The position numbers and the translations under genes were made by a program. A DNA stretch of 64,000 nucleotides from Cellulomonas wangleii. GTDB lineage: Bacteria > Actinomycetota > Actinomycetes > Actinomycetales > Cellulomonadaceae. Under the pieces are notes generated by a model. It did not search any database, was not told where the DNA came from, and worked only from the letters and a program-made list of their open reading frames with translations. Positions 36,026 to 63,328 of this stretch are shown here, in pieces (position 1 is the stretch's first letter; each line of letters opens with the position of its first letter). The stretch lies in contig NZ_CP074405.1 of the NCBI RefSeq assembly GCF_018388445.1, forward strand, positions 3,658,001 to 3,722,000. Reading direction: 5' to 3'.

Positions 36026-38398
36026 GTGTCGCTGACGATCCCGGCTGCGAGCGCGACGCTCGAGGACGAGCAACTCTTCTTCGAGGCGGTGCGCGACGTC
36101 CGCGAGTCCACGCGTGAGACACGCGCTCTCGCCTGGCAGAGCGCGGCGAACGGGAAGGACCGGGCGCGCCTGAAGGCGAACGCCGCGACCGACGCGACGT
36201 TGGGCGCGTCGGATGAGCCCGTCGCGTTCTTGCGCCTCGACCTGGACGACGGCGACACGTACTACGTCGGCGAACACGGAGTCTCCGACGCGGACAACGA
36301 GCGCGTCGTCCTCAGCTGGAAGGCTCCCGCGATCCTTCGCCTGCGAGGAGCCTCGCACCACGACCGCCGCGGCGTCGCGCGTCAGCGCAACTACCGCACG
36401 GAGCCGATCAACCGGATCCGCGACATCGACGACGTCGTCCTGGCCGAGCTCGCCCGTCAGGTTGCCGAACTGCGGACGTCGGACGCCCAGATCGTCTCGT
36501 CGGATACGTTCCTCCAGTCCGAGCTGGCGCGGACGCGATCGCCCGAGATGCAGACGATCGTCCGCACCATCCAAGCGGCGCAGGCCGACGTGATCGCCGC
36601 GCCGCACGACACCTTGCTCGTCGTGCAGGGCGGGCCCGGCACCGGCAAGACGGCGATCGCGCTGCATCGCGTCGCTGCACTGTTGTTCGGTCCTCTGCGC
36701 GACGTCACGAACAACGAGGTGCTCGTCGTCGGGCCCAACGCCACCTTCCTGAAGTACATCTCCCGCGTGCTGCCGGAGCTGGGCGAGGAGAACGTCGTTC
36801 AGCGTGACATCGGGCACCTGATGGCCACGACCGTGACGCCGGATGTCGTCGAACGGCCGGCAGCAGCCCGGCTCAAGGGCGACGCGCGCATGGTCGAGGT
36901 CCTGGCCAGGGCTCTGAGCGATCGCATCCGGCCGCTGCGGGAAAGTGTCGAGTTCACGTTCGACGACGTGTCGTGGCGCGTGACTCTGACACCACAGGAC
37001 GTTGCGGAGATCATCGACGAGGTCGACCGGACCCCGTACGCCGTGGGACGAGCACGGTTCCGCGAGCTTCTCGAGTCCGAAATCGCGACCGACGCGCGCC
37101 GGCGGCAGAAGGCGGACGGCCGATGGACCAACCGCAGCGCGACCCCGCGCCCTCGACCAACCGACGTCGAGTCGCTCGTCGAGCGCGTGTGGCCGCAGCT
37201 CACGCCTGCCGCGTTCCTCCGCGACCTCTTCGGTTCTGTCGAGCGACTCCTGTCGGCCGCAGGTTCCACGCTCGGCGCCGACGAGGTCGGGCTGCTCCGT
37301 CGTCAGGCGGCGCCCAAGCTGTCAGAGCAACAGTGGTCGAAGGAAGACCTGCCACTGCTCGACCACGTCGCGATCGAAATGACGGGTGAGGCCGAGACGT
37401 ACGCCCACATCGTCGTGGATGAGGTCCAGGACCTCTCCCCCATGCAGCTCCTGGCGCTGCGACGCCGGTCCCGCCACGGGGCGATGACGATCGTCGGCGA
37501 CATCGCGCAGTCCACCGGGCACTGGGCACGCGATTCGTGGACCGACATCGTCGACCTGCTGGCCTCGCCGCTGCCGACCCGGCGCGTCGACCTCGAGTAC
37601 GGCTACCGGGTCCCGCGGGCCGTCATGGAGCTGGCCGCACGCCTGCTGCCGGAGGCTGCGCCGGGAATCGTGGCGCCCACCATCGTTCGGGACGTCGAGA
37701 ATGCGACTCGCCTGCACCCTGTCGGGACCGCGGACGACCAGTTCGCGCGTGCCGTCGAGGTCGTGCGCGAGCACAGCAGCAAGGGACTCTTCGTCGGTGT
37801 CGTCTGCCCGGACGGGGGCCGTAACCGCCTCGAGGACGCCTTCCGTGACGCGCGGATCCAGTGGAACGACGCAGACAAGGGCGGGCTCGCGTCGGCTATC
37901 AACGTCGTCAGCCCTGGTGCGTCCAAGGGCCTGGAGTTCGACGCTGTCGTCGTGGTGGACCCCGAGACGATCGTGCAGGCGGGGCCGCACGGGCTGCGAA
38001 TGCTCTACATCGCGCTGACCAGGACGACCGGGTACCTCGACGTGGTGCACGTTGCGGGGAGCCTGCCGCGGTTGCTGGCCGAGGGCGGTGCTACTCAAGA
38101 GCCCGCCCGGGTCTCTCCGACTTCTGCGAGCGGCGCAGACGGGCCGACCGAGGCCGCCCCGGCGCTCCCTGACGTGCCCGTCCCTGCCAGGACGGAATCG
38201 CCCACGGCTCAGGACGAGGATCGGCCTGATGCGTCAGCCGCACGCGCGCGCCCCCGGAGCCGCGGCGGTTCGGTCCGCGAACGGACGGTCGCGCTGAACG
38301 CCGAGAACGTGCTGGAGCTCCTTGCCGAAGTCGCGCCGGCTCACCTGTGGCAGGAGATCCTCGAGGAGGTTGCGGCCCGCATCGCTGATGAGTCGTAA
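36026..38398 (+). CDS. HelD-like SF1 ATPase, copy 1
   Basis: A 790-aa protein. GTG 36026 follows a GAGGGG site. The N-terminus has the HelD-type coiled coil (DEQLFFEAVRDVRESTRETR), a module with FLRLDLDDGDTYYVGEHGVSD and LSWKAPA, then an SF1 ATPase core: Walker A QGGPGTGKTA (about 201-210), Walker B VVDEVQDLSP, GDIAQSTGHW, and a C-terminal ALTRT. HelD proteins strip and recycle RNA polymerase. A disordered tail precedes a conserved C-terminal helix block (NAENVLELLAEVAP). A paralogue is at 55254-57659. A defence role is possible because the two flank an island, but housekeeping HelD also fits. Confidence 0.82.
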   Translation: MSLTIPAASATLEDEQLFFEAVRDVRESTRETRALAWQSAANGKDRARLKANAATDATLGASDEPVAFLRLDLDDGDTYYVGEHGVSDADNERVVLSWKAPAILRLRGASHHDRRGVARQRNYRTEPINRIRDIDDVVLAELARQVAELRTSDAQIVSSDTFLQSELARTRSPEMQTIVRTIQAAQADVIAAPHDTLLVVQGGPGTGKTAIALHRVAALLFGPLRDVTNNEVLVVGPNATFLKYISRVLPELGEENVVQRDIGHLMATTVTPDVVERPAAARLKGDARMVEVLARALSDRIRPLRESVEFTFDDVSWRVTLTPQDVAEIIDEVDRTPYAVGRARFRELLESEIATDARRRQKADGRWTNRSATPRPRPTDVESLVERVWPQLTPAAFLRDLFGSVERLLSAAGSTLGADEVGLLRRQAAPKLSEQQWSKEDLPLLDHVAIEMTGEAETYAHIVVDEVQDLSPMQLLALRRRSRHGAMTIVGDIAQSTGHWARDSWTDIVDLLASPLPTRRVDLEYGYRVPRAVMELAARLLPEAAPGIVAPTIVRDVENATRLHPVGTADDQFARAVEVVREHSSKGLFVGVVCPDGGRNRLEDAFRDARIQWNDADKGGLASAINVVSPGASKGLEFDAVVVVDPETIVQAGPHGLRMLYIALTRTTGYLDVVHVAGSLPRLLAEGGATQEPARVSPTSASGADGPTEAAPALPDVPVPARTESPTAQDEDRPDASAARARPRSRGGSVRERTVALNAENVLELLAEVAPAHLWQEILEEVAARIADES

Positions 38399-38577
38399 CC
38401 ACTCTGGACACCGACTAGCGACAGGGAGGCGTCTTCGCGCGCACTCCCGCGAGCGCTCGTCGTCGCTCTGCCCGTCATGACGATCGTCCGACCCGCTAGT
38501 CCTCCCGCAGGATGATTCAGGGCACCGCCAGCGCGGCGGTCCCACGGACTCCACAGCTGCCGTGCTGAGCTCCGCCC

Positions 38578-39479
38578 GTGGACACCGCGATCGAGGCCGA
38601 GCTCAGGACGCAGATCATCGCCTGGGTGCTCCAGCGCGCCGAGGCGAACGGCGGGTTTCTGCACCGTCAGGAGCTGCTCGGCTACCGGACGGACGGACGG
38701 ACGGACGGAACCTGCCACTCATCGACTACTCCCGTGGCATCCGCAACCCGGCGGGCCTGTCCTCAACACTGGCAATCGTCCAGTCGGCGCACGGGCCATA
38801 CGACGACGCCGAGGACCCGGATGACGGGCTGCTGCACTACGCGTACCGCTCCGGTGATCCCGACGGCAGCGACAATCGCAAGCTCCGCAACGCGATCACC
38901 ACCGGCATGCCACTGATCCTCTTCCGCAAGGAGCAGCCGAACTACTACACGCCCGTGGCGCCGGTATACGTCGTCGACGACGTCCCGGAGGAGCGGGCCT
39001 TTCTCATTGCCCTGGACGAGTCGTTCCGGTACATGGGCGGCGTCCGACACCTCGGTGCGGACCAGCGGCGCTATGCCCTGCGCCTCGCCAAGCAGCGACT
39101 TCATCAGCCGGCGTTCCGCACGCGCGTCCTGCTCGCATACGGGACACAGTGCGCAATCTGCCAGCTCAGGCACGGGTCGCTGCTGGACGCAGCGCACATC
39201 GCACCGGACTCGTCCGAGCAGGGCATCCCCACGACTCCCAATGGCCTCGCCCTGTGCAAGATCCACCACGCGGCGTTCGACCAGAACATGCTCGGCATCT
39301 CACCGGACTACGAGGTGCACATCGACCGCGACCTCCTGCACGAGGTGGACGGGCCGATGCTCAAACACGGGCTGCAGGAGATGCACGGGCGGACGTTGAC
39401 CCTGCCGGTGCGACGGACAGATCACCCCGACCGGGACTTGCTGGCCGCTCGCTGGCGGGTGTTCGGCGCCTCAGCCTGA
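38578..39479 (+). pseudogene. HNH endonuclease gene out of frame at a (GGAC)n repeat
   Basis: GTG 38578 starts MDTAIEAELRTQIIAWVLQ and reads to a GGAC tract at 38687-38709. The rest of the protein continues in another frame: NLPLIDYSRGIRNP, DDGLLHYAYRSGDPDGSDN, then an HNH zinc-finger nuclease domain (CAICQLRHGSLLDAAHIAPD, CKIHHAAFDQ). This matches the COG3440-like restriction endonuclease layout. By codon count, six GGAC units (or three) restore one frame; the window has five. It may be a phase-variable gene in the OFF state, a real pseudogene, or a sequencing slip. Confidence 0.75.
38687..38709 (+). repeat. (GGAC)5 tetranucleotide repeat inside the HNH gene
   Basis: Five GGAC units plus GGA. 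The unit is not a multiple of three, so gain or loss shifts the frame. The upstream frame is joined to the downstream HNH frame only at 3, 6 or 9 units. Confidence 0.9.
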
Positions 39480-39952: not shown

Positions 39953-42900
39953 TTACCTACTCATCTGAATCCTGCGCGCCTGTGGCGAGTCCGGGGTCGA
40001 GACGTAAGCCTGGCCGACTGCCAGCTTCTCGATCTCCATACTCAGGTCCTGACCCGACCTCCCCCTGAGAAAACCCGCCACCTGCTTGCTCGCTGGGAAG
40101 TTCGTGCGGAAAGCAATCTTGGTTCCCGCGTTGCCGACGACATCTCGGTGGAAGTCGGCCGCCCCCTGGCTGGCGACGACGACGACGACGCCGTACTTCC
40201 GCCCCTCCTTCATCAGCTTGGGAAGCGTCACGTCCTTCGCCAACCGATGCGCTTCATCGAGTACCACGGCCAGCTTCAGCGTTCCGTCCTGCGGCCACTG
40301 GAACATGTCGCGGTACACCTTGCGCAGCAAGAACGCACCTGCGGCGAGCTGCACCTGCTCCAGCGGGATAGCGCTGACGTCGACGACCATCCCTCCCTCT
40401 CGCGGCCGAAACGCGCCAGCACCATCACCGGCGAACAGCCCGAAGTCAGTGAGAGGACGGACTCTTTCTCGTGCGTGCTTTCCCTTTGCCGCGGCCTCGA
40501 CTGCCTCCAGCGCTTCGGCGAACTGCTCGACCGATGGCGCTCGGAGCTCCTGACCGTCGATCACACCGAGGTAAGCGTTCTGGATCGCCTTGTACACGTG
40601 CGACTGCTGGATCTCACCGAGGCCGGCGACGTAGGCGATGATCTCCGCGGTCTCGAACGCCAGTGCGTTCAGCAGGGGGCCCGTCGCGAGGGCACCCTCG
40701 AACGGGCTGAAGGGGAGCCCCTGACTCGCGTCGAGCACACTCGCCCCCGCCGGGGGGTCTGCCGCCATGTCACCGTGGAAGTCCAGCAGCAGCGACGGCA
40801 GACCAGCCTCCGAGAAGGCGCGGACGACGCGACGGGTCGTGACGGACTTGCCCTGACCCGGGATCCCGAGGATGAAGCAGTGCGGACTGCCCTTCGTGCT
40901 CACGGACCACACCAGATCCGCCCCCTGGACGTCGGTACCGAGAACAACGTCGATGCTCTGGGGCGGGCCGGACGGCTCTAGCTTTCGAAACTCAGCTTCT
41001 ACAGGCGAGTCGATGGGCTCTGCATCGCACTCCGTCGGCGCGACCGTCACGGCGACAGGTTGCTGTGGGACCCCGCCGCCACCTGCGTTCCCGGGGACGT
41101 CGACAGATGACTTTGCTGCCACGTCCGCTGATGGGCGCTCGGCACGCTTACCCTCATCTACGACCTTTGTCGAGAAGCCAGCCTGGCCAAGGTCCGCCGC
41201 GGTGAGCACCGAGATCGGGACTTGCCGATGCTGCGTCGGGACGCCCTCCGCGCCATTGAGGCTGATCACGTAGCCGTGCATCGAGATTTCCACAGGCGCC
41301 CACGCCTCTAGATGCCGATCGATCAGCTTGTGCGTGTCGGCCAACTTTTCCTTCGACAGGGTCCCGTTCACGACGGCCCGGTCGGCGTAGTAGTGCAGCA
41401 TGCCGGCCAGCCTCGCGCGCTGGAGTGCGGCATCGACACGCGGAGGATCGACAGCGAAGAAGCGCGCGACAAGGAGCCGCCTGGTCTCCTCGAGCTGATC
41501 GACGATGTCGTCCGCGAGCTGGAGCGGCAACGCAGCCGCCTTGCGCGACTTCACCTCCACGCACTCGATGCGCAGTCCGCCACGGTGGACGCGCACGAGC
41601 AGCAGGTCACACCGACGCGCGGGATGGTCGGCCTCCCGCGCCGACCTGCCGAAGATCTCCTCGTGGGAGTCGACAGGGACGATGATCGCGTCCTCCAGCT
41701 TCCGACGTGCGGAGAGGTGTGCGAACAGCGCCGCGAGGCTGACCGCCTCCCGCGCGAAGGACTCGCTGCCCTGGAGCCGCAGGACGAGCCGCCCCGAGAT
41801 CGCGAGCAGGCTCTCGATGATCAGCGTGACGGACTCACCGACCTGATCGAGGCCGAGGTCGTCCATCGCCCGCTTGAGGATGTGGACGACCTCGCCGCGT
41901 TGCTTGGTAGTCACCGTCAACCGGTGGCTCAGGCCCTCGATGAAGTCAGGCGCATAGTCGAGCATGTAGCTGGTTGTTCCCAGACCCATCGCGAGGGCGT
42001 CGTCGTAGAGGTCGAGCCCGACGAACCGGTCGAGGGTCATCACCCAATCCGCCACTTCGTGAAGCACGCGGATCGCCTGCAGACCATCGGGCTCGACGCA
42101 AATCCTCAGCGCAGGCGAGGAGCCCAGGCCGGTGTGCGCGCCGAGAGCTGCCTGGTAGGACTTGTGCGCCTCGACGGCGGCGCGACCGGGTGCGTCGGGG
42201 GTCGACAGCAAGGCCGGCGCGCTCACCCAGGCAGCCTTCCCCTCGTGGTCCCTCGTCGTGATGACGGGAGTGAGCAGGTCGTGGAAGGCCGCGAAACGGT
42301 CGGTCCCCGCCGTGAGCGTCCCGGTCATCCCCAGACCCGCGACGTCCTGAATGATCGCGATGTGACTGGCCCGGTCGTCTCGTACCAGTGCGTCCGGCGG
42401 GCGCACGGCGATGCCCAGCGGCGGGGCCAGGTGGCTCCGCGAGCCGGGCGCTTGAGCCAACTGAAGCGTCCGCTGCAGGTCGGTGAGGCGGGGAAGGGGA
42501 GACGCGAAGCCCGCGTCGCGCCCGTAAGCAACGACCTCGACGCGCGGAGCATCGGGCGTGACGTCCTCGGCCGTCGTCGCGGGAGCGAGCAGCGACTCGA
42601 CCGCAAGGCCGGCGATCTCCCCGTCACCGGGGTTCATCAGCGCGATGCGCAGGGCACGCGCTTCGGGGTGCGAACGGCGGAAGTCGTCCAGTCGGCTGGA
42701 CACCATGGCCGCGGCCGCGGTGAGCGCGGTGGACCGCCGCGGCACGTCGAGCGCGCCGTACACCGCCGACGCGACCGCCTCGGGCGCCGCGACGGACGGA
42801 GCCAGGAGCACCGCTGAACCGAATGCCACCTCGTCGAAGTACACGAGGACATCCCCGGTGGCCGCGAGGCCCGTGAACGGCAGGTTCGCCGGTTGCACGC

Positions 42901-44785
42901 GCGCGAACAGTTCCGCGTCGACGGCCGATCGGCGCACCTTCGCGCCGCCCACCGCGAGCAGTTCCTGGCACCAGGAATCGGCGACACCGAAATGCGTCGC
43001 GATCCAGGCGACTCTCAGGGGATGGATCGGGAGCACGACGACCGCGAGCTCCGGCCTCGCCGCGGTGCCGACCTCGAGCGACACTGTGTCCAGCCGGAGC
43101 AGCGCCTCGCGCTGGCTGTCGTCAGCAGCGTCGAGCGCTCGCTTGTAGCTCTGCGCGTACTCGATCGCGAGTTTCCTGGCGTCGGGGTCCCACGAGAAGA
43201 CCTCCGGCACGTCCTGCGGTGCGGACCGGGCGAGGAGCGCCAACAGGTCCTTGCGCTTCCTGGCGAGCGCGGCGGGCAGGTCCCAACGCTGTGCGAGAGC
43301 GGACTGCGAGACGATCGGCTCGCCGAAGTCCGACTTGGCCTCGAACGCGGTGATCGCGGGATCAGCGATGACCCGGCGCTGGAGGCCGACGATCGTTGGG
43401 GCGACCCGGAGCTGCACCCCGAGGTGCTTGCCGATCCGTGCCGAGAAGACCTTCCCCTCGAGATCCCACGCCTGCATATCGATGTCGGTGTTCGGTGCGC
43501 CCGCAAGCACGGCGTTGAGCTGAGCCTCCGCCAGCGAGGCGGCTGAGGAATGCCGCATCGGCCTCTCGGACAGAGAGTCCTCGATCACCACCTCGAACTG
43601 GTCGCTGTCTGCCGTTGCCGGGGTCTCGTCGGACAGCAGCAGAGGGACGCCGTTCGCGTCGAGCGCGGTGATGCGCACAACGAACAGCGCGCCGCCGACG
43701 AGGTCGTCCGGGCCGAGCTCCAACGAGAGGCTCGTGGACATCCGGGTTCCCTTGACCCGGCGGTCGATCACGGACGACGTGGCGTCGTCCCGGAGGTCAG
43801 CCGGCGGCAGAAGTTCCAGGAGCCAGCTGGCTACGTCGGTGGGCTTGGCGGGTTTCGTCTTCCATCGCAGGCCCACGGAGCTGGGGTTCTCCGGCGACGT
43901 GCGGATATACAGCGCGCCGCTGTCCGACGACTCCAGCTTGCTGAACTTCTCCACCGCCCCATCCGCCCTGGTGAAGCTCTCCATGTGGAGCTCGACGATC
44001 CCTGACGCGACCTCGCGGTCCCAGGGGATGTCGGACAGGGTGATCCCCTGCTGCGTGTAGAGGCGGTGCGTCCACTCGACGGTGTTCCGTAGGTCCCCGT
44101 GCGCGGAGTCGAGCACGGCGACGAGCTTCTCGTGGACCTCGCCCGGCGCGACCCGGACCTTGCGCAGTCGTTCCCGCACGGTGGTCGTGGCCGTAGACGG
44201 TCTCGCGACGGCGGCGACGAGCTCGGCGTTGAGCTCCAGGTTGGCGCGCAGGAGGGACGCCTCGGACGTGTCGACGAGGAGGCCCACACGCCATAGTTCC
44301 CGCCCGAAGGCTCGGTGGTCGTCCGACTCAAGCACAGCGGCCAGGTAGTCGAGTCGCGCCTCGATCGGCACACGGAGCTTGCGGAACAGTGCCGTCACGG
44401 GCAGCTCGGGCCACCTCCTGGCAACCTGATTCTTCAGGGTCGCAGCGACGGCCTCGAGTTCGTCGACGAGCGCGAGCCGCTCGAACGAGTTGTCCAACGA
44501 GCTCGCGGCGTGGGCCTGGCCGGGCGGGACCAGCAGCACGAAGACGCGAGCCTTGTCGTTGCGGATGCCGACCGCGGTCTCGACGTCGACGGCAAGTTCG
44601 CCGGTGACCGACGAGAGCACCGCCACGCGGACCCGCTCCTCGTCGACCTCGCTCGCGAGCAGGCGTGCGAGCTCGAACGCCTCGGTCTCGGCGATGTCGT
44701 CCACGCGGAGGCAGTGGCCCACCTCGGCGCCGCTCACGGATTCGAGCACGCGCGCGGCGAGCTGCTCGAGGACCAGGTTTCTCAT
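39953..44785 (-). CDS. Large HerA/FtsK-like ATPase with PD-(D/E)XK-like nuclease motif (MAD8/DptH-like)
   Basis: A 1610-aa protein. ATG 44785 overlaps the upstream stop (ATGA). The first about 1000 residues are unassigned and mostly helical. Near residues 1059-1079, CDLLLVRV...ECVEVKS gives the D...ExK pattern of PD-(D/E)XK nucleases. A Pro/Gly linker (about 1210-1245) leads to a HerA-like ATPase: GIPGQGKSVTT (about 1307-1317), LLLDFHGDM, VVLDEAHRLA (Walker B, about 1507). It resembles MAD8 of methylation-associated defence and DptH of phosphorothioate-dependent restriction. It likely translocates on and cuts DNA as the effector, by inference. It is the last gene of a four-gene operon. Confidence 0.72.
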   Translation of the reverse strand: MRNLVLEQLAARVLESVSGAEVGHCLRVDDIAETEAFELARLLASEVDEERVRVAVLSSVTGELAVDVETAVGIRNDKARVFVLLVPPGQAHAASSLDNSFERLALVDELEAVAATLKNQVARRWPELPVTALFRKLRVPIEARLDYLAAVLESDDHRAFGRELWRVGLLVDTSEASLLRANLELNAELVAAVARPSTATTTVRERLRKVRVAPGEVHEKLVAVLDSAHGDLRNTVEWTHRLYTQQGITLSDIPWDREVASGIVELHMESFTRADGAVEKFSKLESSDSGALYIRTSPENPSSVGLRWKTKPAKPTDVASWLLELLPPADLRDDATSSVIDRRVKGTRMSTSLSLELGPDDLVGGALFVVRITALDANGVPLLLSDETPATADSDQFEVVIEDSLSERPMRHSSAASLAEAQLNAVLAGAPNTDIDMQAWDLEGKVFSARIGKHLGVQLRVAPTIVGLQRRVIADPAITAFEAKSDFGEPIVSQSALAQRWDLPAALARKRKDLLALLARSAPQDVPEVFSWDPDARKLAIEYAQSYKRALDAADDSQREALLRLDTVSLEVGTAARPELAVVVLPIHPLRVAWIATHFGVADSWCQELLAVGGAKVRRSAVDAELFARVQPANLPFTGLAATGDVLVYFDEVAFGSAVLLAPSVAAPEAVASAVYGALDVPRRSTALTAAAAMVSSRLDDFRRSHPEARALRIALMNPGDGEIAGLAVESLLAPATTAEDVTPDAPRVEVVAYGRDAGFASPLPRLTDLQRTLQLAQAPGSRSHLAPPLGIAVRPPDALVRDDRASHIAIIQDVAGLGMTGTLTAGTDRFAAFHDLLTPVITTRDHEGKAAWVSAPALLSTPDAPGRAAVEAHKSYQAALGAHTGLGSSPALRICVEPDGLQAIRVLHEVADWVMTLDRFVGLDLYDDALAMGLGTTSYMLDYAPDFIEGLSHRLTVTTKQRGEVVHILKRAMDDLGLDQVGESVTLIIESLLAISGRLVLRLQGSESFAREAVSLAALFAHLSARRKLEDAIIVPVDSHEEIFGRSAREADHPARRCDLLLVRVHRGGLRIECVEVKSRKAAALPLQLADDIVDQLEETRRLLVARFFAVDPPRVDAALQRARLAGMLHYYADRAVVNGTLSKEKLADTHKLIDRHLEAWAPVEISMHGYVISLNGAEGVPTQHRQVPISVLTAADLGQAGFSTKVVDEGKRAERPSADVAAKSSVDVPGNAGGGGVPQQPVAVTVAPTECDAEPIDSPVEAEFRKLEPSGPPQSIDVVLGTDVQGADLVWSVSTKGSPHCFILGIPGQGKSVTTRRVVRAFSEAGLPSLLLDFHGDMAADPPAGASVLDASQGLPFSPFEGALATGPLLNALAFETAEIIAYVAGLGEIQQSHVYKAIQNAYLGVIDGQELRAPSVEQFAEALEAVEAAAKGKHARERVRPLTDFGLFAGDGAGAFRPREGGMVVDVSAIPLEQVQLAAGAFLLRKVYRDMFQWPQDGTLKLAVVLDEAHRLAKDVTLPKLMKEGRKYGVVVVVASQGAADFHRDVVGNAGTKIAFRTNFPASKQVAGFLRGRSGQDLSMEIEKLAVGQAYVSTPDSPQARRIQMSR

Positions 44786-46446
44786 GCGTTCTCCGAGAGG
44801 TTCACCAAGGGATTGCGCACCCGCTGCGCATCGAGGTCGTCGCTGAGTCCTTCGAAGACGCCGAGCAGCTGAAGCCGGTACTTGAACGCTTCGAGGTTCT
44901 CGGCCGCGGCGGCTCGGTTGGCAGCCGTCGCCATGGCGCACGGAGGTCGGTTCACGAGGAGGCCGAACCGCTCCTCCAGCTGCTTCAGGACCTCGCCGAT
45001 CGTCAGCTCCGCATGTGCCGCTCCGCCTCCTCGCCGGGCGAACGTCACGGCCAGTAGCGACGCCAGCAGCTTGTCCGACGGGGCATACGCCCACGAGCTC
45101 CGCACGTTCAGGGCGCCGGTCAGCACACCGATGTCGGTCTTGATGCCGCCCGCGGACCAGAACCACTTGACGGCGTTCTCGTAGCCACGCTTCTTCAGCG
45201 CCTCGACGAGGACGTCAGCGAGTCGGTCCGCCGCCGGGCGGGGGTCCGCCTCCATGGTGGCGAGAAAGTGGCGCGCGTCCTCGTCGTCGCTCTGCTCGTT
45301 GAGGTCGACGATCCGCGACAGGAGGTACTCGAGGTGCCCGACGACGCGCGGGATCTCCTTCGCGTCTGCGACCAGCGCGACCCTCTCGGCCGGGCTCAAG
45401 CTCTGGTCGGCGAGCTCGGCCTTGAGCGCGGGCGCTCCTCGGATCGACAGCAGGTACAGGCGGTCCCGAAAGAACTGCCGGGTGATCTCGAGATCGCGCT
45501 GCACACACTCGCGAGCCAGCAGGTCCGAGGGGGAACCCTTGCTACCTGTGAAGTCGACGTACTGCTCCAGCGGGTTGGAGGCGTCGTCGTCGACCATGTC
45601 GTGCGGGATCTGCCCTGTCTCGATGAGCTCGCGGGTCGCCCGCGCGATCCGCAGGGGGAGCTGGAACAGACGGAGACCGAGAATCGCGGCCATGTGCTGC
45701 GACATCACGAGCGACGGGGCTCGTTCGCCGTAAGCCTGGAGGTAGTCGAGGACGTCCGCACCGAGCGGCCTCGTCGCGCCCGGCACGGGCGACCTATACC
45801 GGGCAGTCTGCTCGGCATCCCTGTCCTTCGCAGCGGACTTGGCGTCGAACAGCTCGACAAAGTACAGCGTCAGCAGGGCGGTGATGTCGACGTCGGTCGT
45901 CCCGTCGTAAGTCGGCGCCCATTTGGGGGGATCGCTGAAGGTCACGCCCGGACCGAAGGCCCCTGTGAACTGCTCCCGGATCCAGGCAGCAGCCTTGTCT
46001 GTTGAACCCTCGGAAGGCCCCAGTCGAGCGGCCATCTCGCGCAGGAGCTCGCGGTAGACGACCATGTCGGCACCGCGGTGGCGCGACCGGGCAGGGAAGC
46101 CAGCCCGGAAGACAGCCACCGTCGTGGGCCGCAAGTACTGCATCTGCTCGCTCGCACGCGCGCGACCCGCGCGTCCCATCTCGACGACAGACGCGCGGAG
46201 CCAACCGTCCAGCACGGCACGGCCGCGCGTGTCGTTGAAGCCGGCCAGATGTCCGCTCTGCGCCAAGGCAGCCCGCTTCTCGTCGTACAGCTTCGCCGCG
46301 CTGACGTTGGTCGCGGTGCGCCCCTGCTTGATCGCCAGCTCGAAGATCTGCGTCAGCATGCGCTCGACGTCCGTGTCGTTCGGCTCGACCACCGTCAGCT
46401 CGCGGTAGGCGAAGGTGCGGAGCTCCTCAGGCAGCTCGATCTTCAT
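44782..46446 (-). CDS. Unknown 554-aa operon protein (MAD7/DptG-like by position)
   Basis: A 554-aa soluble protein, mostly helical (MKIELPEELRTFAYREL...), with no P-loop, nuclease or membrane motif that I recognise. It overlaps the kinase gene stop by 4 bp and the HerA-like gene start by 4 bp, so the three are translated as a unit. By size and place between the kinase-ATPase and the large HerA-like ATPase it corresponds to MAD7 or DptG, both adaptor-like proteins of unknown activity. The name is inferred from order, not from a motif. Confidence 0.6.
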   Translation of the reverse strand: MKIELPEELRTFAYRELTVVEPNDTDVERMLTQIFELAIKQGRTATNVSAAKLYDEKRAALAQSGHLAGFNDTRGRAVLDGWLRASVVEMGRAGRARASEQMQYLRPTTVAVFRAGFPARSRHRGADMVVYRELLREMAARLGPSEGSTDKAAAWIREQFTGAFGPGVTFSDPPKWAPTYDGTTDVDITALLTLYFVELFDAKSAAKDRDAEQTARYRSPVPGATRPLGADVLDYLQAYGERAPSLVMSQHMAAILGLRLFQLPLRIARATRELIETGQIPHDMVDDDASNPLEQYVDFTGSKGSPSDLLARECVQRDLEITRQFFRDRLYLLSIRGAPALKAELADQSLSPAERVALVADAKEIPRVVGHLEYLLSRIVDLNEQSDDEDARHFLATMEADPRPAADRLADVLVEALKKRGYENAVKWFWSAGGIKTDIGVLTGALNVRSSWAYAPSDKLLASLLAVTFARRGGGAAHAELTIGEVLKQLEERFGLLVNRPPCAMATAANRAAAAENLEAFKYRLQLLGVFEGLSDDLDAQRVRNPLVNLSENA

Positions 46447-49400
46447 GAGTCCGCCCCCTCCCGGGTGAGGACGCCGCCGACATTGCGCACCAGGTCGCTC
46501 CCGCCGGACGGATCGACGACGACGACCCGGTGTGCCGGCGTCGTCCGCAGCACGTTCCCGAACGACGCCAACTCGAGCTTGACGGCCTCTGCGCCCGAGT
46601 CGCCGAGGATCTCGCCGTCAGCCGCACGCCGGATCAGCTCGTACGAGTCGAGCGTGAGCACGATGGAGCCGAGCCTGTGCGAGAGGCGCAGTCCTTCGGG
46701 CTGCGACTCCACGAACCTCCCGTCGGGCTCGAGCGCGACGAGTGTGAACTCCTCCGCCGGGATCTCGCGGAGTACCGACCAGCCGTCGCTCTCACCATCC
46801 CGCAGCGCGAGTGCGCTTCCTTGGTAGCCGTGGGCGCCCAGGACGCGGCTGAGCCCGAGCAGGACGGTCTCCTTCACGGAGCCGTCGAGGTCGCCGTTGA
46901 GTGCGTCGACGAACTCGTCGAAGAAGCGATAGGCGCGCACCTCATCGCGGAGGGCTCGTGTGCTCGTGGAGCCGAAGAAGACCTGACGGGTCTCGAAGCC
47001 CGGGCGCCGCGGGGTGTAGAGCTCGAGCGTCTCACTGCGCATGGCTCGCTCCACGCCGGGCGCGGCGAGCGTCGCCGGATCGACGCTCGCCCACTCGGCG
47101 ACGAGATAGTCGGGGTTCCCGGCGGAGAACGCCAGGTCGAAGGCGAACGCGTCCGTGGCCAGTCGCAGGTCTCGGCCCTCCTCGATCGCTTTGTGGACGT
47201 CATCGCACGAGCGGTCTCCCGTGAGGGTCCATGCGATGGCCGAGCGGACGTCACGGAAGGTGGCGCGGCGCTTGCGGCGGAGGTGGGAGATAGCGACGAG
47301 CTCGAGCAGGGGCCCACGGCCGGAGCCCCGCAAGATGTCGCGGTTCGCGAAGATCGGGCAGATGCCGCGGGCCCGACAGGGCTGGCAGGCGAGCCAGAGC
47401 TCGTCCGCGACGAACGAGTCCAGCACCTTCCCGGCCAGTCCGGATCCGCCCCCGCCCGTCGGCGCGATCGACCGTCGCTTGAGGTCGACGACGGCCACCC
47501 GCGAGTTCTGGACGGGGCGCCCGCGTGCGTACTGGTCGACTGCGACGTAGAGGTCCTCGTAGACGTCGGCGTGGGCCTGGAAGAAGTTCAGGAGACGGCC
47601 GTCGTTGATCGCCACGAGCGCGGTGTGCTCGGCGCCTCCTTCGAGGGCCTCGACGAGGAGCTGATCAGAGGACTTCCCGTCGCGTGCCTCGCTCGCGTCG
47701 TACACCGCCGCGAAGGTGCGGTCTCCCAGCTTCATCCGCCATCCGGCCGCCGTGGGCTCGGTCACGTCTACAGCACCTTCGTCGGTGAGGCGGCGGCGCA
47801 GGGTGGAGAGGAATGAGGTCTTGCCGTCACCGGGGTTGCCGGTCAGGAGAACGACGTCGAGCTCGCCTCGGAGCACGCTCGGCGTGAGCTGGGTGTCCAG
47901 CAGCGTCCTGACGTACGTCTCCCGAGCGAAGCGATCGTCGAGACCACGGTTGCCGGCGTTGCCGACGGCGCTGCCCCGGTAGAGGCGACGGAGGCTGAGG
48001 ACGGTCGGATTCTGCGCCCTCTCGCCCGGCTCGACGTCGGTCGCGGCGACAGTCTTGAGATACCGGGCGAAGTCTGCGGCGGACGACGGTCGCACGCTGG
48101 TGTCGGCCTCCACCAGTCGGAAGAGCGCGTTGACGATGGCGGAGCCGTCCGCCCCCCACCTCTCCTGCTCCTCGCGGGAGAGCGGCACGAGTTCGGACTT
48201 GTCATGACTGCGATAGGGCTCGCGGCCGAGCATGGTGCGCAGGACGCTCACGCCCAGGGCGTAGAGGTCGGCGGCCGGCGACCATGGCCCCGCCGCCAGC
48301 ACCTCGGGCGCTACGAACGCCAGGGTGCCAGCGATCGTGACGGCCTCGCTCTTCGCCGTCGTCAGTCCGAAATCGATGAGGACAGCCCGACCCTCGTTGG
48401 TCACGACGATGTTGTTAGGGGAGATGTCCCGGTGCAGGTGGCCCTCGCTGTGCATATACGCGAGCCCGTCGAGGGCGTCGAGAACGATGCGGCGATACTC
48501 CTCCGCACCGGCACTCTGCTCCGCGCCGAGCTCCTTGAGGGTGCGACCGGGGACGTAGTCGGACACGATGTAGGCAGGGTCGGCCGAGTAGTCCCACACC
48601 CTGGCGCACCGAGGACTGACGAGCTTCTCCGCGGCCTCGAACTCGTGCATCGCCTGGGTGACCGCAGTCGAGTCGTGGAACTGCTTGATCACCCGCCACG
48701 CGTCTCGATCAACGACTCTCGCCAGCCACGAGGTCGCGAAGCCGCCCTGTCCGAGCTTGCGCTCTATCCGGTACCGACCGCCCACGATCCCGTCGGGTTC
48801 GAACACATCCTGCTTCGGCTCGTCGGCAGGGGCGTTCGGGGGCGGGGGCGGACGCAGCAGCGCGCTCAACCGTTCCACCACGTCGCCGGCCTCGGGCCTC
48901 CCGGCGGGGTCGTCAGCGACGCACGAGACCAGCACGGCGAGCACCGGGTCGGCAGGGTCGACCGCGGCGGGGAGTGCCTTGACGGCGCCTTCGTCTGTCA
49001 GGCGGATGTCCCCGTTGACCCACCAGAGCAGGCTCAGGGCGAGGGCGTACACGTCCGACCTGGTCGTTGCCGCGCCGATCGCGTACCCGAGCTCAGGAGC
49101 CCTGAAGGGGACCGAGCTGTCGACCGTGTCAGCAAGCGCCGGCGCCACGGTGAAATCGGTAGGCAGGTGTGCGAGGTAGAAGTCGCAGAACATGACGCGA
49201 TCGCCTCGAGCCGTGAGGACGCGATCAGGCGAGAGTCCTCGGTGCAGGACACCCGTCGCGTGCACCTCCGCAAGTGCCTCGAAGGCGTCCAGGACGATGC
49301 CGGCCGCGCGGTCGGTCACGCGGCCGCCCTCCGTGACCGCCAGATCACGGGCCGCGGCCCGTCGCTTGAGCGAAAGGCTGGCGACAGGGCGGATCGGCAG

Positions 49401-50195
49401 GACGACCCATCGTCTCGCCTCGTCGACGAAGGTGGCCTCGACGCCCCACGACCGCTGCATGTCCGCGATCTGCTTCGTCGCTTGGCGCTCGTTCTTCACC
49501 AGCTGCCCCGCGTCCACCCCGGGGCCCCAGCCGTCCATCGGGTAGGCGCGGAGCACCACCGGCTCCCGATCGCTGTCCTCGCCCCAGAAGACGCGCGACC
49601 GGCCGACACCGGCGACCTCGTGCAGGACTGTGAAGGGCCCGAGTGACTCGGGAGCCGACTTCCTCGTGGACAGCCCGGCAAGGAACTCGCAGACGGCGTT
49701 CCGCACGGCCGCGAAGTCCGTGCTCAATCTGTCCCATTCCATCAACGCGGCGGGGGCGTCGTGGAGCAACAGGATGTGATCGTCGTCAGGCGGGTAGCCG
49801 GTCGTGTCAAGCGTTACGCCGGGGTAGGAGAGCACGACTGATTCCTGAACGAGATGCTTCGACCTCGCTGCCACCGCGTACCCGGGGACCCTCGCCTTGA
49901 GAAGACCGGCCAGGATCCTCGCGACCTGGGAATTGCGTCCCACCGGACTCGGCCGCAGTGCGCCCTTGACGAGCCACCCGCCGTTCAGGACCTCGACCGT
50001 CGGCCCCCAGTGCTTCTCCTCGAGCACGAAGATGTGGTGCCGCCCGATGACCAGGAGGTCGACGTCGTCCTTCTGCGGCGTCGGAAGTTCTCTTCCGACG
50101 ACGATCAGCCAGTCGGCAGGCAGCTCCTTCGCCAGTGTCTCGGCGGCCACCTGCTCGCCAGGCCCGGCGTAGCTATACACCGCGAGCTCAGCCAT
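46443..50195 (-). CDS. NERD + pseudokinase + Ser/Thr kinase + P-loop ATPase (MAD6-like)
   Basis: A 1250-aa protein. Residues 1-80 are a NERD nuclease-like domain (DVDLLVIG at 44-51, EEK at 59-61). Residues 185-400 are a kinase fold with lost catalysis: HRG at 318-320 in place of HRD and DFY at 338-340 in place of DFG. Residues 470-720 are an intact kinase: GQGGF (482), Lys504, HRDISPNN (588-595), DFG (608-610), APE. Residues 750-1250 are a DptF-like ATPase: GNPGDGKTS (786), then a CxxCx5C cluster. The layout recalls PglW (NERD + kinase) joined to DptF. Phosphorylation as an activating switch is inferred. Confidence 0.78.
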   Translation of the reverse strand: MAELAVYSYAGPGEQVAAETLAKELPADWLIVVGRELPTPQKDDVDLLVIGRHHIFVLEEKHWGPTVEVLNGGWLVKGALRPSPVGRNSQVARILAGLLKARVPGYAVAARSKHLVQESVVLSYPGVTLDTTGYPPDDDHILLLHDAPAALMEWDRLSTDFAAVRNAVCEFLAGLSTRKSAPESLGPFTVLHEVAGVGRSRVFWGEDSDREPVVLRAYPMDGWGPGVDAGQLVKNERQATKQIADMQRSWGVEATFVDEARRWVVLPIRPVASLSLKRRAAARDLAVTEGGRVTDRAAGIVLDAFEALAEVHATGVLHRGLSPDRVLTARGDRVMFCDFYLAHLPTDFTVAPALADTVDSSVPFRAPELGYAIGAATTRSDVYALALSLLWWVNGDIRLTDEGAVKALPAAVDPADPVLAVLVSCVADDPAGRPEAGDVVERLSALLRPPPPPNAPADEPKQDVFEPDGIVGGRYRIERKLGQGGFATSWLARVVDRDAWRVIKQFHDSTAVTQAMHEFEAAEKLVSPRCARVWDYSADPAYIVSDYVPGRTLKELGAEQSAGAEEYRRIVLDALDGLAYMHSEGHLHRDISPNNIVVTNEGRAVLIDFGLTTAKSEAVTIAGTLAFVAPEVLAAGPWSPAADLYALGVSVLRTMLGREPYRSHDKSELVPLSREEQERWGADGSAIVNALFRLVEADTSVRPSSAADFARYLKTVAATDVEPGERAQNPTVLSLRRLYRGSAVGNAGNRGLDDRFARETYVRTLLDTQLTPSVLRGELDVVLLTGNPGDGKTSFLSTLRRRLTDEGAVDVTEPTAAGWRMKLGDRTFAAVYDASEARDGKSSDQLLVEALEGGAEHTALVAINDGRLLNFFQAHADVYEDLYVAVDQYARGRPVQNSRVAVVDLKRRSIAPTGGGGSGLAGKVLDSFVADELWLACQPCRARGICPIFANRDILRGSGRGPLLELVAISHLRRKRRATFRDVRSAIAWTLTGDRSCDDVHKAIEEGRDLRLATDAFAFDLAFSAGNPDYLVAEWASVDPATLAAPGVERAMRSETLELYTPRRPGFETRQVFFGSTSTRALRDEVRAYRFFDEFVDALNGDLDGSVKETVLLGLSRVLGAHGYQGSALALRDGESDGWSVLREIPAEEFTLVALEPDGRFVESQPEGLRLSHRLGSIVLTLDSYELIRRAADGEILGDSGAEAVKLELASFGNVLRTTPAHRVVVVDPSGGSDLVRNVGGVLTREGADS

Positions 50196-51819
50196 CGCTC
50201 ACCGCTCCCTCGTACTGATCGGGCCAGAGCCAGCGCCGCACGTATTTCTCGTCCTTGCTCAGAATCTCGAGATAGGCATTGTGTTTTGTGTAAGTGATGA
50301 CAAGTTGATCCTTGGCTCGCGTGGCGCCGACAAAACCCGCCCGGCCGCGCTGCACGGACTCGGGATCCGACGGGTCGAACGGCTTGACCGTGTCGAGGGC
50401 GAACAGGAACACCACCGGGAACTCGTGGCCCTTTGCCGAGTGGGGCGTGATGATCTTTACCGTGTTTGCCCCGCGGTCGAAGTTCTTCTTGTCATCCTTG
50501 CTGACGACGGCCGTGAAGGGGATGCCCATCGCCTCCAGGGCAGGGGCGATGTGCATGAGAGTGCCGCGGTAGCGCACGATGACGACGGCGATGTCGCCAG
50601 GATCACGATCCCCGCTCGACACCATCCGGTGGATCTCCCAGGCGATGGCCCTCGCCTGTTCGGCCGGAGTCTCGGCCCAGATCAGTTCGACCGGCTCACC
50701 AGGCGGAGCGGATTCGAGTTGTTCGACGGCAAACTGCGCATTGATCGCACCTATCGCGCCCAAGATGTTGCGAGTGCTGCGGTAGGGCCGCGTGAGATGG
50801 AGATGCTGGACGCCGAGTGACTCCAACCCCGCGAGAGCGTCGTCGGCGCCGTAGAGCGCTTGCGCCGGATCCCCCGCCATGACGAGCCCTCCACGTCCAG
50901 GCGTCAGGCCCGCCATGACGATCGCGATCCATGACGGGCGGAAGTCCTGGGCCTCGTCGAGGAGGATGGCGTCGGCAATCGGACGCACCCCCTTCGACTT
51001 CGCCACCTCCAGGGCACGGTGATTGGCGGCCTCATCGTCGAACGAGAACCGGACTCCGACCTCCTTCGCGTACGGCCACATGGTGGTGACGACGACATTG
51101 GGGTGGTCGGCGACGAGGCTCCTGAGGTACGGCACGAGCGCGTTGTTGAAGCAGAGAAATTGAATCCGCCAGTCAGGGTGAAGGCTCGCGAGCCATCGAG
51201 CGCGGGCGGCGAGGACGAGCGTCTTGCCGCTGCCCGGCGGGCCCTGGACCAGAGCGAGGTCGAGATCACGCCTCTGGGCGATCGCCGCCTGTTGGGCGTC
51301 GAGCGTGACACGGAGCTGGTCGCGCTCGGCGGCTCCCTGGTCATGTGAACCAGCCCGAAAGACGGTGGTGAAGGTGAAGGTGGGCTCCAGCAGGCCTCTG
51401 ATCCGCGCAACCAGTTGCTCGTCGAGCGGCCGCGCTCGCGCCTGGCTCAGCCAAGTGGAGTCAGACAATTGAGCTGGACTGATGCTGATTCGTCCGCCGA
51501 TACCGATTGCTGGCTCCGTCAACAGCTTCCGCGTGTGCAGAACCACCCGGCCGATCGGAGTCGTGGCGTCGAGCTCGAGGGTCTGACGCAACGAGTGCAC
51601 TCTCTCGTTGAGGCGCAGGAAGGGTATCTGGGTCTCGAACCCGGTGTCGGAGTCATCGATGTCGATGGCCAGGAGACCAATCTCTGGGTACAGCAATACC
51701 AAGCTCGGCTCGCTGTCGTTGGCGAGGCGGATGGCGCGGGCGCCACACCCATGAAGCTGCTCATTGAGGGCAGTCACGACATCGGCGACATCGACCGTGT
51801 CGGTAGACCGCGCCGCCAT
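50188..51819 (-). CDS. UvrD/Rep-like SF1 helicase, first gene of the operon
   Basis: A 543-aa protein. ATG 51819 is chosen because GAGGAGG lies 10 nt upstream; an in-frame ATG at 51843 lacks one. The N-terminal about 120 residues are unassigned (possibly NERD-like: LLAIDIDDSD). Then come Q-type residues, Walker A QGPPGSGKTLV (about 195), ILLDEAQDF, MAGDPAQALYG, PYRSTRN, ITPHSAKGHEFPVVFLF and GATRAKDQLVITYT: all SF1A helicase motifs in order. It overlaps the kinase gene by 8 bp. Such helicases unwind or remodel DNA for restriction effectors. I know of no helicase in this position in MADS. Confidence 0.82.
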   Translation of the reverse strand: MAARSTDTVDVADVVTALNEQLHGCGARAIRLANDSEPSLVLLYPEIGLLAIDIDDSDTGFETQIPFLRLNERVHSLRQTLELDATTPIGRVVLHTRKLLTEPAIGIGGRISISPAQLSDSTWLSQARARPLDEQLVARIRGLLEPTFTFTTVFRAGSHDQGAAERDQLRVTLDAQQAAIAQRRDLDLALVQGPPGSGKTLVLAARARWLASLHPDWRIQFLCFNNALVPYLRSLVADHPNVVVTTMWPYAKEVGVRFSFDDEAANHRALEVAKSKGVRPIADAILLDEAQDFRPSWIAIVMAGLTPGRGGLVMAGDPAQALYGADDALAGLESLGVQHLHLTRPYRSTRNILGAIGAINAQFAVEQLESAPPGEPVELIWAETPAEQARAIAWEIHRMVSSGDRDPGDIAVVIVRYRGTLMHIAPALEAMGIPFTAVVSKDDKKNFDRGANTVKIITPHSAKGHEFPVVFLFALDTVKPFDPSDPESVQRGRAGFVGATRAKDQLVITYTKHNAYLEILSKDEKYVRRWLWPDQYEGAVSDG

Positions 51820-51843
51820 CCCGATCCTGCCTCCTCGGCTCAT

Positions 51844-52436: not shown

Positions 52437-52916
52437 TCACCGCGGATCACGTGAGACCCGTGACCACCCTGCTGCCGCTGCCGGCCGTGACGCCACTTGA
52501 TCCTCGCCGGACGCACGCGCATCCCAGTCCCCCGGCACGGAGGTGTGCGGCAGCGCGACGAGCGCGACGAGATGCGCCGTCCGGGTCCGCGCCGCCGCGA
52601 GGCCGTGCCGGACCGGCAGCGCCAGCAGGATGCGCTTGGCGTCCTGCACCTGCCCGACGGGGTCGAGCGCGTGCCGCTCCGCACCCGACCCTTGCCACCA
52701 CTGCCCGTCGGCGCGGGCGGCGTGCCCGCCCTTCACCTCGATCGCCGCGACACCCAGCTCTGGCCACACGACGAGCAGGTCGATCTCCCGCTCCTTGGCC
52801 CCGTCCTGCAGCGAGGTTCCCACGAGGAGCACGGCGTCGTCCGGCAGGTTGTCGCGAGGTCTCACCGAGACTGCAGTGTCCGGCTCAGCGACTCCACGCG
52901 GCACGCAGCCGCCCAA
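52437..52916 (-). pseudogene. Truncated NERD-domain gene remnant
   Basis: The central part reads LPDDAVLLVGTS, KEREIDLLVVWPELGVAAIEVKGGH and DPVGQVQDAKRILLAL, a clear NERD nuclease-like domain with the D...ExK core. Upstream residues are scrambled, and downstream of VPGDWDAR the frame turns into non-coding-like sequence. NERD genes are normally followed by a helicase. Here only the domain survives, overlapping the next gene upstream. Confidence 0.7.
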
Positions 52917-53610: not shown

Positions 53611-54029
53611 GAAACCATCCCCTCCGATGTCGGGGAGCGCTGCGGCCAGAACCCACCCCGCCGTCGACTACCAGGTTATCCCTCGTGACTTTCGACTACG
53701 GACCTGCACGGGGTTCACTGCCCCAAAGCGGGCATTCGACGCGAATTATTGGCATGGGCCCCGGCAATCACCTCACATGGGCGCACGCGAGAACGTTTGG
53801 TTTGTCGCGGAATCCTCGTCCATGCTCGTTTCCTGCGAATTAGTACGCGACGCCGGGGCGCACATCCGTCCACCCCGCCCGAGGCGTGTTTCGCGTTCCG
53901 GGGACGCGGCCGACGCCGTCGTCGCAGCTGGGAACCTCTGGGGCCAGCCGCCGTGGCGGCTCACGCGCAGACCGCGGCGCCACCGCGTGGTTGCTGAACA
54001 CTGGCGACGAAACAGACCGGACGACCGCT
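53611..54029. other. Intergenic, no gene seen
   Basis: The base composition is more AT-rich than average, with patches such as GAATTATTGG. The frames are shadows. It may hold the promoter of the minus-strand gene at 52885-53610. Confidence 0.4.
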
Positions 54030-54990
54030 CGTCCGCCACTGCGTCAGCGGCAAGCGGTTCACACAACGTCGTCAACAGGCGCGGCGATGCCGTGAGCGAA
54101 CCGGCGCCCGACAACCCCAGCGCCCTCTCCAGCTCCTCCTGCGTCACCTCCCGCGGCACCACCACCGCGTCCCTGAGTGCCACCTTCGAGCGCAGCAGCC
54201 GGTCGAGGTTGAGGTCGAACGACTCGACGTCGGGGTGCAGCGCGATCGGGTAGTGCACGTGCACCTCGCGGGTCTGCCCGACGCGGTAGATGCGGTCGGT
54301 GGCCTGCGCCTCCTTGGCGGGGTTCCAGTGGCGCTTGAGGTGGATGGCGTGGTTGGCGCCCACGACGGTCAGGCCCACACCGACGGCGAGCGGTGACATG
54401 ACGATGACGTTGAACCCGGGCGCTGCCTCGAAGGCGCGGATCTTGGCCAGGCGGGTGTCGCCGGTGCCGGTGGCGGGGGTGTCACGTTGACGATGTCGAC
54501 GCGCAGCCCGTAGATCTCCCGCAGCCACAGCGCGAGGGCCCGCTGGACGTCCTCGGTCTTGGCGACGACGATCGCCTTCTCTCCGTCGTCGCGGACCGTG
54601 TCGAGCACGCCGCGGACGCCCACCAGGGTGCGCGCGGAGTCGTCGACGCGACGCGGGTCACCGCCGAGCGTGCCGTTGAGCAGGCCCGGGTGCAGCGAGG
54701 CGGCGCTCAGCTCGTGGAGCGTCTTGAGCGCGGCGACCTTGGCCCCGGCCCTGGCGCGGTGGCCGGCGAGGACGTCGTCGTAGACCGCGATCTGAGCCGC
54801 CGGCGTCGGCTGGAGTGCTCGTGTATCCGCTTGGGAGGCAGGTTCTCAAGGTGGTCCTCCTTGATGCGGCGCAGCATGAGCGGGCCGACGGCCTCGCGCA
54901 GCTCAAGCCCGAGCTGCTCGTGCTCGGGCCGCTCGCCGCCTTCATCGGCTTGACCCAGTCGTCCTGGAAGTCGGCCCAGGCGTGACGTTC
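54030..54990 (-). pseudogene. Decayed SNF2-family helicase (C-terminal half)
   Basis: Read from right to left in three frames: AWADFQDDWVKPM, then LREAVGPLMLRRIKEDH and LENLPPKRI, then VRGVLDTVRDDGEKAIVVAKTEDVQ, then FNVIVMSPLAVGVGLTVV, HWNPAKEAQATDRIYRVGQT and LDRLLRSK. These are the C-terminal SNF2 motifs (IV-VI) of a RapA/SNF2 ATPase. At least three frameshifts occur and the Walker A half is absent. It is a remnant of an older defence or repair gene. Confidence 0.82.
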
Positions 54991-55253
54991 CGAGGCCTTC
55001 CCGGACGAGGCATGTCGTTGGGACCTCCGTCGTGGTCATCGGCGCGCGGCAAGTGCGAGCCTGGGTCGACCCTGTGGCTCGGTGGAGCTGAGGAGCCCGG
55101 CAGATCGTGGCGCGCCGGACATGCCGGCGCGTCAGTCCACGGGAGTGCCGACGACGGCGCGCCGCCGCGCAGGGCGCCTCGGCACGTCGTCCAGGGCCCC
55201 GTGTCCCGGCCGCCGCGTCCGATGCCGGTGGAAAGCGATGCCAAAGGGGACAC

Positions 55254-60922: not shown

Positions 60923-60925
60923 CTG

Positions 60926-63309: not shown

Positions 63310-63328
63310 TGCACGGCCCCCCGGTCGC

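What the first reader, a model, noticed from the sequence alone, without database searches (positions are those of the whole stretch)
39953..51819. Four-gene kinase/HerA/nuclease operon without methyltransferase
SF1 helicase, NERD-pseudokinase-kinase-DptF-like ATPase, a 554-aa unknown, and a PD-(D/E)XK + HerA-like ATPase are coupled by 4-8 bp overlaps. The last three match the MAD6-7-8 set in size and order and, distantly, DptFGH. But no modification gene (MAD2, Dnd, Ssp) is in the window, and a helicase leads the operon. It may be a self-contained, modification-independent defence system or a new MADS subtype.
Basis: partly seen in the sequence, partly recalled or inferred. Interest (0 to 1): 0.85.

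Follow-up and report, generated by a model that had tools for sequence, protein, structure and literature searches.

The report
Methylase-less DndFGH-like operon led by helicase
This is a four-gene bacterial operon (helicase, kinase-ATPase, DndG-like protein, nuclease-translocase) with no recognisable active methylase gene of its own; it is likely an anti-phage restriction machine, and how it would tell its own DNA from foreign DNA is an open and testable question.

Summary
The operon is real and as described: four same-strand genes coupled by 8, 4 and 4 bp overlaps. The last three are homologues of MAD6-7-8 and of DndF-G-H: C = NERD + pseudokinase + kinase + DndF-type P-loop domain; B has the DndG fold; A = methyltransferase fold without the catalytic motif + PD-(D/E)XK + HerA. 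The missing methylase is partly a window-edge effect: a type 2 BREX gene set straddles the window end, and its PglX, the only DNA methyltransferase that five family searches found in this genome, lies 5.9 kb outside. But the cassette itself is methylase-free: of 20 related actinobacterial loci, all carry C-B-A, 11 carry the helicase directly upstream, none carries MAD2/MAD5 inside; the family is a clade far from methylase-linked MADS. So it is not a MADS. Standalone DndFGH, and the NERD-pseudokinase-kinase DndF, are already in print; the dedicated SF1 helicase is the new element. Modification-independence is not shown: 12 of 21 cassettes lie within 25 kb of some DNA methyltransferase, of about six kinds, against 0.8 expected by random placing. 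Verdict: new, helicase-led variant of a known kind.

The parts
50188..51819 (-). Gene D: UvrD-like SF1 helicase, 543 aa (551 aa from the in-frame ATG at 51843)
   Evidence: Walker A, Walker B and motif VI kept in 12 of 12 cassette-linked copies; N-terminal ~130 aa has no Pfam match and lacks an ExK
46443..50195 (-). Gene C: MAD6/DndF-like protein, predicted sensor, 1250 aa
   Evidence: NCBIfam MAD6 445.4 bits (cut-off 460)
49878..50159 (-). C residues 13-106: NERD nuclease domain, D46...(E/D)59xK61 kept in 21 of 21
48846..49628 (-). C residues ~190-450: pseudokinase (HRD Asp replaced by Gly or Ala in 21 of 21)
   Evidence: borders approximate
48012..48788 (-). C residues ~470-728: Ser/Thr kinase with K504, D590 and D608 kept in 21 of 21
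47166..47927 (-). C residues ~757-1010: DndF-type P-loop domain (GNPGDGKT, ND motif, Zn-like CxxC...C), 21 of 21
   Evidence: compared with the DndF description in PMC10853773
44782..46446 (-). Gene B: MAD7/DndG-like subunit, predicted to bind DNA, 554 aa
39953..44785 (-). Gene A: MAD8/DndH-like protein, predicted nuclease-translocase, 1610 aa
41900..42796 (-). A residues ~664-962: methyltransferase Rossmann fold without [DNS]PP[YFWH]
41516..41698 (-). A residues ~1030-1090: PD-(D/E)XK nuclease, D1060...E1077xK1079; D...(E/D)xK kept in 20 of 20 rows that cover it
39986..40972 (-). A residues ~1272-1600: HerA/FtsK ATPase, Walker A, Walker B and sensor Q kept in 20 of 20 rows that cover it

Best explanation
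The operon encodes a DndFGH/MAD6-7-8-type protein set plus an SF1 helicase, and it is predicted to work as a standalone complex that restricts invading DNA without a cognate modification enzyme. Shown here: gene order and coupling, homology, the DndG fold of B (predicted model), kept and lost catalytic motifs, absence of MAD2/MAD5 from the cassette, matching divergence of the helicase and the other three genes. Inferred: B (DndG is described as three winged-helix domains) and the methyltransferase-fold part of A would bind and scan DNA; the HerA motor of A would translocate it and the PD-(D/E)XK domain would cut it; C would be the trigger, its DndF-type P-loop domain sensing an invader nucleotide or state and its active kinase, with the pseudokinase, switching the complex, the NERD domain being a second nuclease; D would load at ends, nicks or forks and unwind or open the target, much as GajB is thought to serve GajA. 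Self would be spared because the complex fires only on an infection signal or DNA state, not because of an own methyl mark.
For: C-B-A in 20 of 20 loci and D directly upstream in 11 of 20; D-C spacing -14 to +8 bp in 12 of 12 including the window, and D divergence tracks C, B and A (r 0.975, 0.958, 0.972; 0 of 2000 shuffles each). Apart from the cassette no neighbour family is shared by more than 3 of 21 places. MAD2/MAD5 in none of 20 cassette loci within 10 kb except the edge of a separate MADS at L011, against 6 of 6 MADS loci with MAD2 and MAD5 homologues. In G399 cassette and MADS lie side by side. Tree split at SH-aLRT 100. B = DndG fold. Motifs conserved. A's methyltransferase-fold domain without catalytic motif in 19 of 19 copies checked. 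Published model of standalone DndFGH (PMC10853773, section 25).
Against: No functional data. 12 of 21 cassettes lie within 25 kb of a DNA methyltransferase against 0.76 expected at random, so a borrowed mark is possible. The window's own neighbour is a BREX-2 gene set with PglX. Nine of 20 relatives lack the helicase, so it is not essential in all lineages. Helicase homologues outnumber B homologues in the protein database (223 at E<=1e-30 against 53, the query included, at E<=1e-5; both searches scored a capped set of about 8000 candidates), so D may have other partners. Whether the DndF P-loop domain is catalytic is unknown. B is mostly helical and the rmsd to DndG is large (6.8), though the match stands far above the rest.
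Confidence: 0.6

Rival explanations
1. Borrowed-mark restriction: the complex would read the methylation laid down by whichever modification system sits next door, and cut DNA that lacks it.
For: A DNA methyltransferase place within 25 kb in 12 of 21 genomes (0.76 expected, P 6e-13 under random placing), of unlike kinds: BREX-2 PglX, MAD2, type I, type IIG, a C5 enzyme and a PF01555 enzyme beside a type III-like Res. Wadjet JetA over cut-off in the same genomes: 0 of 5 within 25 kb (Fisher P 0.04).
Against: Defence islands cluster anyway and the control has only 5 loci (one of them 34 kb from a methyltransferase; two matches below the cut-off were dropped, neither near one). Five genomes with enough contig have none within 25 kb. 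No methyltransferase family is shared by all (PF07669 14, PF02384 19, PF00145 10, PF01555 12 of 21), and the target sites of these enzymes would differ while the cassette is conserved.
Confidence: 0.2
2. It is an accessory module of the adjacent type 2 BREX system in this genome, using PglX marks.
For: Same strand, BREX-2 gene set starting 7 kb upstream of the operon; PglX 18 kb away is the only DNA methyltransferase found in the genome. C and PglW share the NERD-pseudokinase-kinase front.
Against: BREX-2 PglX occurs in only 4 of 21 cassette genomes, this one included, and none of five BREX-2 proteins searched (PglX, PglY, PglZ, BrxD, BrxHI) has a match within 10 kb of the 20 other cassettes.
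Confidence: 0.08
3. A decayed MADS that has lost its methylase genes.
For: MAD6-7-8 homology and order.
Against: Motifs intact across 21 loci, a helicase in place in 12, a separate deep clade.
Confidence: 0.04
4. The helicase is only a neighbour and the functional unit is C-B-A.
For: Nine of 20 relatives, eight of them one Pseudonocardiaceae subclade, lack it.
Against: Tight coupling in 12 of 12 and matching divergence, though vertical descent alone would also give the latter.
Confidence: 0.08

Closest known systems
DndFGH (DptFGH) standalone restriction module, as redefined in PMC10853773
   Same: Three-gene order; DndF with NERD + inactive + active kinase; DndG fold; DndH with inactive methyltransferase, REase and HerA; no in-built modification
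   Different: An SF1 helicase leads the operon in 12 of 21 loci; B and C fall to the MAD7/MAD6 models; glycine-rich loop NxGxG kept in A's methyltransferase fold, whereas the paper calls that motif eroded in DndH
MADS (MAD1-8), recalled from Maestri et al. 2024, not held in the library; gene names from NCBIfam
   Same: MAD6-7-8 homologues in the same order
   Different: No MAD2 methylase and no MAD5 specificity subunit; about 23-28% identity to the MADS proteins; separate clade
Type 2 BREX PglW
   Same: NERD-pseudokinase-kinase N-terminal half
   Different: C ends in a DndF-type P-loop domain and is in an operon without PglX/Y/Z
Gabija GajB / PADLOC C3a187 (NERD+UvrD)
   Same: UvrD-like SF1 helicase of defence type; best PADLOC match of D is C3a187 (113 bits)
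   Different: No GajA-like partner among the four genes; partner is a DndFGH-like set

Membership tests
DndFGH | DndG fold | tested here: met
DndFGH | DndF P-loop domain with Walker A and ND motif | tested here: met
   21 of 21 against the description
DndFGH | DndF C-terminal alpha+beta domain | not tested
   C's C-terminus was not modelled
DndFGH | DndH: catalytically inactive methyltransferase domain before the REase | tested here: met
DndFGH | DndH REase and HerA/FtsK domains | tested here: met
DndFGH | N-terminal inactive SF2 domain, HTH and beta-sandwiches of DndH | not tested
   A residues 1-559 were not modelled
MADS | MAD2 DNA methyltransferase in the system | tested here: not met
   No match in the window's genome; none within the cassette at 20 relatives
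MADS | MAD5 specificity subunit | tested here: not met
   No tblastn hit in the window plus 40 kb or in 20 loci; not searched genome-wide
MADS | MAD7 family membership by NCBIfam cut-off | tested here: met
   438.5 vs 410 bits
BREX type 2 | PglX/PglY/PglZ within the same operon | tested here: not met
   They form their own gene set 7-26 kb away
Gabija | GajA (OLD-TOPRIM) partner in the operon | tested here: not met
   No such domain in the four genes
Antiphage activity | Protection against phage or plasmid | not testable with these tools
   Needs a bench test

The most novel reading that the evidence does not exclude
The cassette is a mark-agnostic, plug-in restriction engine: a DndFGH-type machine with its own helicase and no methylase that settles beside whatever modification system an actinobacterium has (BREX, MADS, type I, IIG, III, C5) and uses that neighbour's mark as its licence, so that one effector serves many unrelated epigenetic codes.
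Probability: 0.15. Interest if true: 0.85.

Novelty: new variant of a known kind. Interest (0 to 1): 0.52.

Why it matters
It shows a DndFGH/MAD6-7-8-type engine that has become a stable, methylase-free unit with a dedicated helicase, so the question of how such engines spare self DNA can be tested on four genes. It also warns that the NCBIfam MAD7 model labels proteins as 'methylation-associated' where no MADS methylase exists.

Tried and rejected
Search for cognate MAD genes in trans: MAD2 has no match in G000 and is over cut-off in 1 of 20 relatives, where it belongs to a neighbouring MADS. DndC (phosphorothioation) in 1 of 21, so PT is not the general mark. Plasmid searches: B found only a 21% Hymenobacter hit, D none at E<=1e-20, C one distant MADS kinase at E<=1e-40. 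First genome-contig scan with one protein found nothing; the alignment found 20 loci. The idea that D is a Gabija helicase was dropped for want of GajA. The UvrD gene of the Hymenobacter MADS locus is not a D orthologue (E 0.05). A phylum-wide look for D found it only in the window's genome (1 of 396 at E<=1e-40, 3 candidates scored per genome), which says it is rare but not what it partners with. Solved-structure search with B's profile: no match; the fold search did find DndG. In the VIA lists, families not shown are not excluded. Papers: Maestri et al. not held. Searches for a helicase-led DndFGH or MAD6-8 operon in print (titles and abstract starts seen) showed none; 'UvrD' has 0 occurrences in the main texts of PMC10853773 and PMC12839542. 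Seen of the papers: PMC10853773 abstract, passages and sections 19, 21, 25; PMC12839542 abstract and passages; PMC12458937 and PMC10952713 passages only; supplements not read.

Weak points of the counts: the methyltransferase table was typed by hand (MAD2 over cut-off only; 81 places, other matches at E<=1e-3, some of only 20-27 bits), and four draft loci with short contigs were counted as 'no'. Random placing ignores that defence genes cluster. The D-divergence correlation would also arise from plain vertical descent. L014, L017, L019 and L023 had split or run-on frames as I called them: A motifs n = 20 (L014 lacks the region), catalytic-motif check n = 19 (without L014 and L023), A2 alignment 17 rows (without all four). 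Gene starts were chosen by alignment to the window's proteins. The tree used the quick method.
Full report
OBSERVATION. The window (72% GC) is part of a single 4.08 Mb contig. On the - strand lie D 50188-51843 (a start at 51819 fits the length of the closest relatives), C 46443-50195, B 44782-46446 and A 39953-44785, with overlaps of 8, 4 and 4 bp. Family scans: D is UvrD-like (Pfam UvrD_C 64 bits; best PADLOC model C3a187 'NERD+UvrD', 113 bits); C has NERD, Pkinase and a P-loop; B has no match in the Pfam scan (the protein database lists PF26611 for it) but passes NCBIfam MAD7; A has HerA-type matches and weak MAD8/DndH matches.

WINDOW EDGE. The genes from 58823 to beyond the window end are BrxHI, BrxD, a 350-aa PglZ-C-terminus-like gene, PglZ, PglY, PglX and PglW. 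PglX passes the NCBIfam BREX-2 model (1403 vs 400 bits), PglW (1110 vs 990) and BrxD (643 vs 350) too; PglY matches below its cut-off (887 vs 1700); PglZ was recognised from its C-terminal 221 aa (PADLOC). Five families (MAD2, Eco57I, N6_Mtase, DNA_methylase, N6_N4_Mtase) find only this PglX in the genome. So 'no modification gene in the window' holds only because PglX, at extended coordinates 69921-73547, lies 5.9 kb beyond the end.

RELATIVES. The protein database gave 53 B homologues at E<=1e-5, the query included; an alignment of 31 of them found 20 loci in Actinobacteria (Nocardioides, Kineosporia, Micromonospora, Actinomadura, Pseudonocardia, Cellulomonas and others). C-B-A is present in 20 of 20 and D directly upstream in 11 of 20. 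Apart from the cassette, no neighbour family is shared by more than 3 of the 21 places. In an even draw of 396 genomes of the phylum, MAD7 matched in 3: this genome, and two (G107, G193) whose loci are canonical MADS with MAD2 and MAD5. All 6 MADS loci examined (two genomes, four plasmids) hold MAD2 and MAD5 homologues and no D-like helicase at E<=1e-3. None of the 20 cassette loci holds them within 10 kb except the edge of L011, where a separate MADS (MAD2, MAD5, AIPR, its own MAD6; the fetched stretch ends inside it) lies about 5 kb downstream. The MAD7/B tree of 48 rows puts all 21 context-known cassette rows on one side and all 5 context-known MADS rows on the other, SH-aLRT 100, with long branches; the helicase-less rows are eight Pseudonocardiaceae plus L018 (quick method; P0056 is a long row of unsure place).

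THE HELICASE BELONGS. D-C spacing is -14 to +8 bp in 12 of 12; pairwise divergence of D correlates with C, B and A (r 0.975, 0.958, 0.972; 0 of 2000 shuffles each). D homologues are, however, more numerous than B homologues in the protein database (223 at E<=1e-30 against 53 at E<=1e-5, capped candidate sets), so D may have other partners too; their contexts were not seen.

SELF AND NON-SELF. BREX-2 PglX occurs in 4 of 21 cassette genomes, DndC in 1 of 21, MAD2 over cut-off in 1 of 21. Eco57I-type matches occur in 14, N6_Mtase in 19, C5 in 10 and N6_N4 in 12 of 21: no family is universal, but no genome lacks all. Random placing expects 0.76; Wadjet JetA over cut-off in the same genomes is near one in 0 of 5 (the closest 34 kb). 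The neighbours are different systems: BREX-2, MADS, type I (G404), type IIG with an SNF2-like gene (G400, G405, homologous to each other), a type IIG/DrmMI-like enzyme (G410; its relative at G412 is 68% identical over the stretch held), an N6_N4 enzyme beside a type III-like Res (G413), a C5 enzyme (G407). The match at G408 is weak (27 bits) and unclassified. This is what defence islands give, but it is also what a module that uses its neighbour's mark would give, so modification-independence cannot be claimed.

MECHANISM. My choice is a standalone restriction complex: B and A would scan DNA, A's HerA would translocate and its PD-(D/E)XK cut, C would sense infection and switch by its kinase, D would open or enter the target at ends or forks. 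Gene content, predicted folds and motifs are shown; complex formation, activities, trigger and target are inferred, following the published DndFGH model (PMC10853773 section 25) and, for D, the GajB precedent (passage in PMC10952713).

VERDICT. New variant of a known kind; interest 0.52.

Noticed in passing
window 58823-64000 and L003:1-13722: Type 2 BREX gene set (BrxHI, BrxD, PglZ, PglY, PglX, PglW) straddling the window end
   Followed up: yes
window 62257-63309: 350-aa gene between BrxD and PglZ that matches only the PglZ C-terminus (53 bits): partial duplicate or a separate small component
   Followed up: no
window 36008-38077 and 55236-57305: Two UvrD-like helicase genes, 80% identical in DNA and both on the + strand, flank the operon; homologues also sit upstream of the cassette on its strand in L009 (1605-4109) and L025 (2236-4635)
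   Followed up: partly
window 52437-52916 and 53773-54528: Short NERD gene and a ZorD C-terminal fragment between the operon and the BREX side: look like gene remnants
   Followed up: no
window 38562-39479: HNH_2 endonuclease gene convergent with the operon's end
   Followed up: no
window about 36000-64000: GC is 64-71% per 2-kb bin here against mostly 72-78% before (69-71% at 26-32 kb), as an acquired defence island might show
   Followed up: no
L011 and L032 (Actinomadura xylanilytica): Helicase-led cassette and a MADS side by side in one genome
   Followed up: yes
L033:124-7631 and L075:3-6874: Homologous SNF2-like + type IIG methyltransferase pairs under 20 kb from the cassette in two Pseudonocardia genomes, each near a ~2000-2300-aa open frame that is also homologous
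   Followed up: partly
A residues ~718-722 (alignment A2 positions 159-163): NxGxG loop conserved in the inactive-looking methyltransferase fold of the cassette's A protein but worn in MAD8: it may still bind SAM or a nucleotide
   Followed up: partly
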